NCBI GenBank assembly: GCA_018333865.1
Contig: JAGXSE010000039.1
Coordinates: 1 to 64,000, forward strand
DNA from: Syntrophomonadaceae bacterium
GTDB taxonomy: Bacteria; Bacillota; PH28-bin88
Reading direction: 5' to 3'
Length of the DNA: 64,000 bases
In this document: positions 43,771 to 46,361 of the stretch, piece after piece
Position numbering within the stretch: position 1 is the stretch's first letter
Layout of the letters: each line of letters begins with the position of its first letter
Program-made: the position numbers and the translations under genes
Notes under the pieces: model-generated
What the model saw: the letters and a program-made list of their open reading frames with translations, nothing else
The model's database searches: none
What the model was told of the DNA's origin: nothing

Positions 43771-45114
43771 CTATACCAATGCCACCGGGCAACTGGCCAG
43801 AACCTCCCAGAAAAAACGACCGGTTAAATCCCGGCCCCCGGCGTCGAACGCAATGGCCGGAAGCAGAATTAAGTCGGGGCGAAAATCTGGTTCTTCCCGC
43901 AAAAAGCCGGCTAAACTGCTGGCAAAATCTTCCACTACCAAAAGGCCTGCCGACTGAATAGAACCGCCAAAGAAATGGTTTTTCGTCTCCACCAACCGGA
44001 CTTCTTCCTGAAAGGGATATTTCTCCAGGGCAAGCCGCAGGGCAGAAGCCCCCAAAACGGAACATAACAGGATTACTTGCTTGGCCCGGAAACGGTTGAT
44101 TTCTTTATTGATCCCCTCGATAACAGCCGGGTCCAGGTCATAGCCCATCACCAAGCCGGATGTTGTACCGGCCTCTTTTTCCACCACTACCGGATCTCTC
44201 ACACCGGCAAGCTCTAGCTTTGGGTTATTCCCCTGCCAGACCCTGCGAAAGGCATCTACCCGGCAAATTACCGGGGAACCATCAACGGCTGTAATCACAT
44301 CTCCCCGGCGTAATCCAACCCTGGCCGCCGGGGAGCCTTGAATAACTCCCTCCAGCCTGGCAGCCAGGTCTGTCACCCGGAAGGGCTCCATCATTACGGG
44401 CACTTTGCTGGACTTGTTTATCTCCTGGATCATTTCTTCCAGTTTTCGAGCGGTTTCTTGGCTAAAATGCATGAGGGGAGCAGCATTCCTGGTAAAACCG
44501 GGCAAGAACACCCTGACTGTCTGAGCGCCCCGCTGGGTTAAATCCAATATGCTTTGCCAAACATCTTCCCACCCGGTGATCCAAGGCATGGCCACAATAC
44601 TGCCATGAAAAGGAATCCCATACTCTGACAATAAATCTGGCAGGGCGATAGCAGCTTCAGGGTTTTGATCACTCATTAAGACCTGTCTTTTTATCGGATG
44701 ACAGCTGTTTAAGGATAAATTGATTTCGACTGGCATCAGGTCTTTTAACATGGTCAAACCTTTTCTGTCCAGCAGGGTACCGTTGGTAGTCAGCTGGATC
44801 AGAGTTTTCGGAAAGCGGCGGCGGACAGAGGTTAACACAGGGAATATTTGGGGATGAGTAAAAGGCTCCCCCTCGACTATGCGAGTCGCCGACTCCCCGA
44901 CCACTATTTTCCGGTTTTCCCGCAGGTAATCCAGCCCCTCAAGAATGGCTTCGGCGCTCCTAAAGGGCAAATAAATTACCTCGACACCCGGCGGGTTTTG
45001 CTTATGGCTGCAAAAAATGCAGCTGACATTACACCTGGAGGTAATGGGCAAAACATTATAGATTTGCATCGAGGAAAAAACCAAGGAATTTATTCTTGCA
45101 GCGGCAAAAGCCAA
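43771..45114 (-). CDS. Radical SAM protein with PDZ and DUF512-like C-terminus
   Basis: About 447 residues from TTG 45112-45114, chosen because a perfect AAAGGAGG lies 7 bases upstream; a GTG at 45154-45156 lies inside a DnaA box and lacks an RBS. The radical SAM motif SRCNVSCIFCSH is near the N-terminus. A PDZ-like domain (GSPAARVGLRRGDVITAVDG) occupies the middle, and ETKNHFFGGSIQSAGLLVVE matches the DUF512 end. In usual DUF512 proteins the PDZ domain is at the N-terminus, so the order is permuted. Function unknown. Confidence 0.8.
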   Translation of the reverse strand: MAFAAARINSLVFSSMQIYNVLPITSRCNVSCIFCSHKQNPPGVEVIYLPFRSAEAILEGLDYLRENRKIVVGESATRIVEGEPFTHPQIFPVLTSVRRRFPKTLIQLTTNGTLLDRKGLTMLKDLMPVEINLSLNSCHPIKRQVLMSDQNPEAAIALPDLLSEYGIPFHGSIVAMPWITGWEDVWQSILDLTQRGAQTVRVFLPGFTRNAAPLMHFSQETARKLEEMIQEINKSSKVPVMMEPFRVTDLAARLEGVIQGSPAARVGLRRGDVITAVDGSPVICRVDAFRRVWQGNNPKLELAGVRDPVVVEKEAGTTSGLVMGYDLDPAVIEGINKEINRFRAKQVILLCSVLGASALRLALEKYPFQEEVRLVETKNHFFGGSIQSAGLLVVEDFASSLAGFLREEPDFRPDLILLPAIAFDAGGRDLTGRFFWEVLASCPVALV

Positions 45115-45148
45115 GTGCCAGCCTCCTTTAAATTCCTTAAGCATCCGC

Positions 45149-45298
45149 TTATCCACAGGGAAATCCTTGGTGTAACAAGGGTTTCAGGTTTTATCACCAC
45201 TATCCACAAAGACCAGTATCTTCCCGGTTTAAAATTTTTCCACAAACCGAAATTCAGGTTTTCCAAAGTTATTAACAGAGTTATCCACATTATCCACA
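45149..45298 (+). other. Cluster of DnaA boxes
   Basis: Perfect TTATCCACA boxes lie at 45149-45157, 45281-45289 and 45290-45298, the last two abutting. Near matches CTATCCACA (45200-45208) and TTTTCCACA (45236-45244) have one mismatch. All five point the same way within 150 bases of the tsaD/radical SAM gap. dnaA itself is not present. Confidence 0.8.
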
Positions 45299-45341
45299 AG
45301 CAAATCTCCCCCAGAAAACACCCGTTTGCAGGACTAGAGGC

Positions 45342-46361
45342 CTAGACAAGAGCTAAATCTGGAACAGCGTTCAGATCCAACCCGGCAAATTCCCGCCGCA
45401 AGTACTGGAAATGCCCCGCACACGCAATCATGGCGGCATTATCAGTACAAAGTACCGGCGGCGGATACAAGACCCGCATCCCAGATTCGGTAGCCCTTCC
45501 GGTCATTCTGGTGCGCAGGTGATTATTGGCGGCTACACCCCCGGCAAGAATCACCGTTTCAACACTTGCCCTCCTGGCAGCCAGGATAGTCTTTTCCACC
45601 AGCACATCTATAACTGCAGCCTGAAAACTTGCGGCAATGCTGGCTTTGTGGACGGGCTCCCCCCGCTCTTTAGCGTTATGTACAAAATTGATTACTGCAG
45701 ATTTAAGCCCGCTGAAGCTAAAGTCCAAACTGCCTTCCTCCAGCCAGGCCCGGGGAAACGGGATAGCGGATGCGTCTCCCTCCAAGGCAATCTTTTCTAT
45801 TTGCGGCCCCCCAGGGTAGCCTAACTTCAGTGTTCTGGCTATTTTATCGAAAGCCTCCCCGGCAGCATCATCCCTGGTAGAGCCAAGCACCCGCCTGGTC
45901 TGATGGTCCTCCAGGTAAAGCAAGCTGGTATGCCCGCCTGAAACCACCAGACAGACCAGTGGGGGCTTAAGATCCGGATGGGCAAGAAAGTTGGCATAGA
46001 TATGGCCCACCAGGTGATTCACACCAAGGAGCGGTATTTTCAAGGCATAGGCCATGGCTTTAGCTACAGATACCCCCACCAAAAGTGCACCTGCCAACCC
46101 AGGCCCATGGGTAACGGCAATTGCCTGCAAATCTCTAAAGTTAATCTTCGCCTCGGCCATCGCCTGTTCCACCACCAGGGTTATTTTCTCCACATGCTTG
46201 CGGGAAGCTATTTCCGGCACTACACCACCGAAACGCTGATGGGTATCAATCTGAGAAAAAATGACATTGGATTTAACTATCTTCCCGTTAGCCACCACTG
46301 CGGCGGACGTTTCATCGCAGCTTGTCTCAATCCCCAAGATAATCCCAGACCTGGTCTCCAA
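45342..46361 (-). CDS. tsaD: tRNA N6-adenosine threonylcarbamoyltransferase
   Basis: 339 residues. ILGIETSCDETSAAVV opens the ASKHA fold, HGPGLAGALLVGVSVAKAMA and NHLVGHIYANFL hold the metal-binding histidines, and AGGVAANNHLR is near the C-terminus. TsaD transfers threonylcarbamoyl to A37 of tRNAs decoding ANN codons, with TsaB and TsaE. It ends the tsaE-tsaB-rimI-tsaD run. Confidence 0.97.
   Translation of the reverse strand: METRSGIILGIETSCDETSAAVVANGKIVKSNVIFSQIDTHQRFGGVVPEIASRKHVEKITLVVEQAMAEAKINFRDLQAIAVTHGPGLAGALLVGVSVAKAMAYALKIPLLGVNHLVGHIYANFLAHPDLKPPLVCLVVSGGHTSLLYLEDHQTRRVLGSTRDDAAGEAFDKIARTLKLGYPGGPQIEKIALEGDASAIPFPRAWLEEGSLDFSFSGLKSAVINFVHNAKERGEPVHKASIAASFQAAVIDVLVEKTILAARRASVETVILAGGVAANNHLRTRMTGRATESGMRVLYPPPVLCTDNAAMIACAGHFQYLRREFAGLDLNAVPDLALV

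What the first reader, a model, noticed from the sequence alone, without database searches (positions are those of the whole stretch)
45149..45298. Orphan cluster of five DnaA boxes
Three perfect and two one-mismatch TTATCCACA boxes, all in one direction and two abutting, occupy a 230-base gap between tsaD and a radical SAM gene. No dnaA or dnaN is nearby. It could be a DnaA titration or reactivation site (datA/DARS-like), a DnaA-regulated promoter for the radical SAM gene, or part of a replication origin.
Basis: partly seen in the sequence, partly recalled or inferred. Interest (0 to 1): 0.62.

Follow-up and report, generated by a model that had tools for sequence, protein, structure and literature searches.

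The report
Ancient conserved DnaA-box cluster beside tsaD
A short non-coding stretch carrying a row of docking sites for DnaA, the protein that starts chromosome copying, sits behind the gene tsaD; the same row, with its sites on one face of the DNA helix, sits behind tsaD in dozens of families of Gram-positive bacteria including Bacillus subtilis, so it is probably an old DnaA-holding site that helps time chromosome copying.

Summary
In detail: five TTATCCACA boxes (three perfect, two one-mismatch, one direction, two abutting) lie in the 227-bp gap behind tsaD; 0 of 20,000 shuffles gave more than two. It is not the origin, which is on another contig with dnaA, dnaN and DnaA-trios, and GC skew does not turn here. 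It is the counterpart of the B. subtilis gcp(tsaD)-ydiF DnaA-box cluster, one of that species' eight strongest DnaA-binding regions. What seems new is the depth of conservation. In 203 Bacillota tsaD 3' flanks, 109 carry at least three same-strand boxes within 300 bp, against 0 with the reversed motif and 0 of 140 upstream flanks. In the enlarged set, 133 of 243 flanks and 70 of 107 family groups carry it. Spacing is helically phased (9, 12, 21-22, 42-45 bp). At least ten unrelated genes follow it, convergent or codirectional, and in two genomes about 20 kb separates tsaD from an intact cluster. This argues against a promoter for the radical SAM gene and for a stand-alone DnaA-assembly site that limits free ATP-DnaA and initiation. 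Binding and phenotype in this organism are inferred. New member of a known kind, with unexpectedly deep conservation.

The parts
45115..45341 (.). intergenic region holding the DnaA-box cluster (227 bp, 42% GC)
45290..45298 (+). DnaA box TTATCCACA (perfect), second of the abutting pair, tsaD-proximal
   Evidence: abutting pair conserved
45281..45289 (+). DnaA box TTATCCACA (perfect), first of the abutting pair
45269..45277 (+). weak DnaA box TTATTAACA (two mismatches), 12 bp before the pair; conserved core element GTTATTAACAG
45259..45267 (+). possible weak DnaA box TTTTCCAAA (two mismatches)
   Evidence: read; not tested for conservation
45236..45244 (+). DnaA box TTTTCCACA (one mismatch), 45 bp before the pair, a recurring spacing
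45200..45208 (+). DnaA box CTATCCACA (one mismatch)
45191..45199 (+). possible weak DnaA box TTATCACCA (two mismatches), abutting the 45200 box
   Evidence: read; not tested for conservation
45149..45157 (+). DnaA box TTATCCACA (perfect), radical SAM-proximal end of the cluster
45342..46361 (-). tsaD (gcp), the conserved flank; last gene of tsaE-tsaB-rimI-tsaD
   Evidence: PF00814 E=1e-96
43771..45114 (-). radical SAM/PDZ/DUF512-type protein gene downstream (TTG start after AAAGGAGG); neighbour, not part of the element

Best explanation
The gap carries a DnaA-box cluster (DBC) that corresponds in position to the B. subtilis gcp-ydiF cluster. DnaA, preferentially its ATP form, would bind the perfect boxes and spread cooperatively over the phased weaker boxes into an ordered oligomer. 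This holds a set of DnaA molecules away from oriC, and once the fork duplicates the site the held amount doubles, which lowers free ATP-DnaA and delays re-initiation. Shown here: the boxes, their same-strand helically phased layout, the deep conservation, independence from both neighbours, and that it is not oriC. Inferred from B. subtilis: DnaA binding, ATP preference and the negative effect on initiation. Not shown anywhere that I found: that the phasing matters.
For: Boxes far above chance. Same site at the tsaD 3' end in 109 of 203 flanks; reversed-motif control 0, upstream 0 of 140, inside tsaD 1, 0.9-1.4 kb downstream 3 of 186; 559 of 656 boxes on the strand opposite tsaD. 133 of 243 flanks and 70 of 107 family groups in the enlarged set. 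Presence follows the TsaD tree: 20 changes against a shuffled mean of 66, minimum 57. Helical phasing R=0.46 at 10.85 bp, simulations at most 0.16; 0.50 with one locus per family. Conserved core. At least ten different downstream genes. In G254 and G013 the cluster stays intact with family-like spacings although about 20 kb separates it from tsaD. B. subtilis gcp/ydiF region: 10 sites, Kd 0.15 uM, 16-fold ATP-DnaA preference at 55 nM (PMC4447404). Deleting six DBCs gives early initiation (PMC5295017; PMC13220808).
Against: No binding or phenotype data exist for this organism. Absence from Lachnospiraceae and several other groups shows it is dispensable over evolution; [quoted passage not shown] subtilis. 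About 10-fold DnaA overproduction did not over-initiate in B. subtilis (PMC13220808), which fits simple titration poorly. The typical distance from oriC is a property of tsaD itself, since tsaD genes without a cluster lie there too.
Confidence: 0.72

Rival explanations
1. DnaA-regulated promoter: DnaA binding in the gap represses or activates the downstream radical SAM gene, as at sda or ywlC in B. subtilis.
For: The cluster lies directly upstream of the codirectional radical SAM gene, and DnaA regulates genes at several B. subtilis clusters (PMC4447404). 18 of 24 tsaD loci in the radical SAM neighbour group carry the cluster.
Against: The next gene changes among at least ten families (ABC-F ATPase convergent in 28 positives, lgt 13, 5-FTHF cyclo-ligase 11, murC and others). 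No sigma-70-like promoter in the gap. A convergent neighbour cannot be driven from there.
Confidence: 0.1
2. The cluster acts on tsaD itself, for example as a DnaA roadblock or terminator at the 3' end that tunes readthrough from tsaE-tsaB-rimI-tsaD.
For: Fixed position and polarity relative to tsaD; polarity is kept even in G036, where tsaD is head-on to the fork.
Against: In G254 and G013 about 20 kb of other DNA separates tsaD from the cluster, which stays intact. Many tsaD genes lack it.
Confidence: 0.08
3. Nucleotide-state control site (datA- or DARS-like in action) that changes the ATP/ADP form of DnaA rather than only holding it.
For: Conserved phased layout suggests an ordered DnaA complex rather than a simple sponge; strong ATP-DnaA preference of the B. 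subtilis counterpart.
Against: B. subtilis lacks IHF and Hda homologues and the datA and DARS loci, and no regulator balancing DnaA-ATP/ADP is known there (PMC13220808). Boxes all point one way.
Confidence: 0.07
4. A replication origin or part of one.
For: Dense DnaA boxes with an abutting pair.
Against: dnaA, dnaN, a recF-like gene and an AT-rich stretch with DnaA-trios (CTACTACTATTACTA) are on contig C38. GC skew is negative on both sides of 45.2 kb without a sign change there. No unwinding element or trios in the gap.
Confidence: 0.01

Closest known systems
B. subtilis gcp-ydiF DnaA-box cluster (one of six DBCs outside oriC; Ishikawa 2007, Okumura 2012, Smith and Grossman 2015)
   Same: Lies at the 3' end of the same gene (gcp = tsaD), non-coding, multiple DnaA boxes, outside oriC; relatives with a ydiF-type convergent neighbour in this survey bridge the two.
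   Different: Here the neighbour is a codirectional radical SAM gene instead of convergent ydiF. DnaA binding and the initiation phenotype are untested here.
E. coli datA
   Same: Compact DnaA-box cluster away from oriC that lowers active DnaA.
   Different: datA works with IHF and in another gene context (PMC5295017); no evidence of DnaA-ATP hydrolysis here; boxes here are unidirectional and phased.
E. coli DARS1/DARS2
   Same: Non-coding DnaA-box cluster.
   Different: The DARS core has oppositely oriented boxes (own knowledge); here all are in one direction.
Bacterial oriC (B. subtilis type, boxes either side of dnaA)
   Same: DnaA boxes including tandem ones.
   Different: No unwinding element, no DnaA-trios, no dnaA/dnaN, no skew switch.

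Membership tests
B. subtilis-type DBC at gcp/tsaD | cluster of DnaA boxes at the 3' end of gcp/tsaD | tested here: met
B. subtilis-type DBC at gcp/tsaD | outside oriC | tested here: met
   oriC on C38 with dnaA/dnaN
B. subtilis-type DBC at gcp/tsaD | high-affinity, cooperative, ATP-preferring DnaA binding | not testable with these tools
   known only for B. subtilis (PMC4447404)
B. subtilis-type DBC at gcp/tsaD | loss, with the other DBCs, causes early initiation | not testable with these tools
   reported for B. subtilis (PMC5295017; PMC13220808)
replication origin (oriC) | dnaA or dnaN adjacent | tested here: not met
   neighbours are tsaD and radical SAM; dnaA is on C38
replication origin (oriC) | AT-rich unwinding element with DnaA-trios | tested here: not met
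   absent from the gap, present at C38
replication origin (oriC) | GC-skew sign change | tested here: not met
DARS | core boxes in opposed orientation (own knowledge) | tested here: not met
   all boxes on + strand; 85% on one strand in relatives
DARS | stimulates ADP release from DnaA | not testable with these tools
   biochemistry needed
datA | IHF-dependent DnaA-ATP hydrolysis | not testable with these tools
   biochemistry needed; IHF genes were not searched for in this genome
DnaA-regulated promoter | same regulated gene conserved next to the boxes | tested here: not met
   at least ten different neighbours
DnaA-regulated promoter | promoter overlapping the boxes | tested here: inconclusive
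   no sigma-70-like match, but a consensus scan is weak evidence

The most novel reading that the evidence does not exclude
The tsaD-linked cluster is an ancestral Bacillota regulatory element in which helical phasing builds a defined DnaA-ATP filament with its own activity (for instance promoting ATP turnover or handing DnaA to YabA/Soj-type regulators), making it a Gram-positive functional equivalent of datA rather than a passive sponge.
Probability: 0.2. Interest if true: 0.85.

Novelty: new member of a known kind. Interest (0 to 1): 0.58.

Why it matters
DnaA-box clusters outside oriC are known in B. subtilis, but their role is unsettled because the effect is strong only when all six are removed. 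Finding one of them kept at the same gene across Bacilli, Negativicutes (Sporomusa), several Clostridia and the window's lineage, with a phased layout and independent of its neighbours, points to selection on the element itself. It singles out one of the six clusters to study, gives an architecture (9/12/42-45 bp) to mutate, and offers natural losses (for example Lachnospiraceae) for comparison. It also marks a likely control point beyond oriC in anaerobes that have no replication studies.

Tried and rejected
Origin reading: rejected by oriC location, trios and skew. Structured RNA: no Rfam match at E up to 1. Sigma-70 promoter: none found; one terminator-like hairpin at 45160-45185 on the + strand, within chance. 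Chromosomal distance as a signature: positives have a median 18% of genome length from oriC, but tsaD genes without a cluster are near oriC too, so it is not specific. Link with t6A biosynthesis (B. subtilis also has a cluster at ywlC = tsaC, own knowledge): dropped, because the cluster survives away from tsaD and no Sua5/TsaC match was found in this genome to examine. Several loci counted as negative within 500 bp have a cluster further down or only the abutting pair. The primary papers Okumura 2012 and Ishikawa 2007 are not held, so whether they mention conservation outside B. subtilis could not be checked; literature searches found no such report.

Full report
OBSERVATION. They lie in a 227-bp gap between the tsaD stop and the likely TTG start of a radical SAM/PDZ/DUF512 gene (45114, after AAAGGAGG), both genes on the minus strand. 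In 20,000 dinucleotide shuffles of the gap no more than two same-strand boxes were ever seen. In the 3.2-Mb draft genome there are 46 perfect boxes, and nowhere else are three within 500 bp. Further two-mismatch sites fill the array; TTATTAACA at 45269 is the one shown to be conserved.

NOT AN ORIGIN. dnaA is on contig C38 with rnpA-like, dnaN-like and recF-like ORFs around it, flanked by DnaA boxes, an AT-rich stretch and DnaA-trios. GC skew in the window stays negative on both sides of the cluster. The gap has no AT-rich unwinding element or trios.

A KNOWN COUNTERPART. In B. [quoted passage not shown] Six clusters outside oriC, removed together, give early initiation (PMC5295017; PMC13220808).

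CONSERVATION. tsaD loci were fetched by protein search in named genomes and in unnamed Bacillota genomes. In 203 non-redundant 500-bp 3' flanks, 109 have three or more same-strand boxes (up to one mismatch) within 300 bp. The reversed motif gives 0; flanks upstream of tsaD 0 of 140; the end of tsaD 1; a stretch 0.9-1.4 kb downstream 3 of 186. There are 288 perfect boxes against 0 perfect reversed ones, and 559 of 656 boxes lie on the strand opposite tsaD. Adding 40 more Bacilli flanks and reading 1.2 kb gives 133 of 243, in 70 of 107 family groups. Named positives include Bacillaceae, Brevibacillus, Kroppenstedtia, Sporomusa, Alkaliphilus, Thermovorax and the closest named relative, Clostridiales bacterium PH28_bin88. 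Negatives include all 27 sampled Lachnospiraceae, the sampled Selenomonadaceae and six of ten Clostridiaceae; negatives have a median gap of 28 bp to the next gene, positives 271 bp. On a TsaD tree, presence needs 20 changes against a mean of 66 for shuffled labels. In that tree the label also counts loci with only an abutting pair within 1.2 kb, and the two loci with a displaced cluster. The sampling leans towards sequences like the queries, so the fractions are not estimates for the whole phylum.

ARCHITECTURE. Neighbouring boxes are spaced mostly 9, 12, 42-45 and 21-22 bp. All pair distances show a helical period: R=0.46 at 10.85 bp, simulated maximum 0.16; R=0.50 with one locus per family group. 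The boxes therefore sit on about one face of the helix. Aligning 94 loci on the abutting pair reveals AAGTTATTAACAGA-N-TTATCCACATTATCCACAG, which adds a conserved weak box 12 bp before the pair.

INDEPENDENCE FROM NEIGHBOURS. The gene after the cluster is an ABC-F ATPase (convergent), radical SAM, prolipoprotein diacylglyceryl transferase, 5-FTHF cyclo-ligase, MurC, a 2Fe-2S thioredoxin-like ferredoxin, a transglycosylase, a histidine kinase and others. In G254 and G013 the cluster lies about 20 kb from tsaD, beside the 5-FTHF cyclo-ligase that follows it in that family, with spacings matching those of relatives (54/45/44/9 in G254). The DNA next to it on the tsaD side holds metabolic ORFs that I read as glycolate-oxidase-like in one genome and integrase/transposase-like ORFs in the other (names by eye, no family search). 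The element thus appears to be kept for itself.

MECHANISM. The simplest account is a DnaA-holding site. Strong boxes nucleate, phased weak boxes let ATP-DnaA oligomerise, and the site doubles after the fork passes, lowering free ATP-DnaA. In complete genomes with a cluster it lies a median 18% of genome length from oriC (range 8-47%), but tsaD without a cluster is also oriC-proximal, so the position is not special. Polarity follows tsaD, not the fork, in the one head-on case (G036). Binding, ATP preference and effect on initiation are taken over from B. subtilis and are not shown here. Whether the phased complex does more than hold DnaA is open.

NOVELTY. The kind is known and this is a new member. 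The phylum-wide conservation, the phasing and the independence from neighbours were not found in the held literature, but the two primary B. subtilis papers could not be read.

Noticed in passing
G000:C61:81241-81258 (locus L118:2242-2259): A second abutting pair of perfect DnaA boxes lies between comFC-like and hpf-like genes; the same site recurs between these genes in G231, G254, G358, G377 and G145, and beside hpf in G068 (L226-L228, L241, L231, L234).
   Followed up: partly
G000:C9:178048-178213 (locus L115:2049-2214): A third cluster of five boxes in mixed orientation lies beside a divIC/FtsB-like gene and a yabQ-like gene (gene names by eye).
   Followed up: no
own genome G000: No match to the Sua5/YrdC family (PF01300, TsaC) although tsaB, tsaD and tsaE are present and all 14 control genomes match; real absence or an assembly gap.
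   Followed up: no
L236 (G310:C1:84365-84485): G310 has no cluster at tsaD but has a six-box cluster 84 kb from oriC between an RNase J-like and an L,D-transpeptidase/LysM-like gene, which may be a replacement site (gene names by eye).
   Followed up: no
window 45160-45185: A 10-bp inverted repeat (GAAATCCTTG-N6-CAAGGGTTTC) sits between the first and second boxes; conservation not examined.
   Followed up: no
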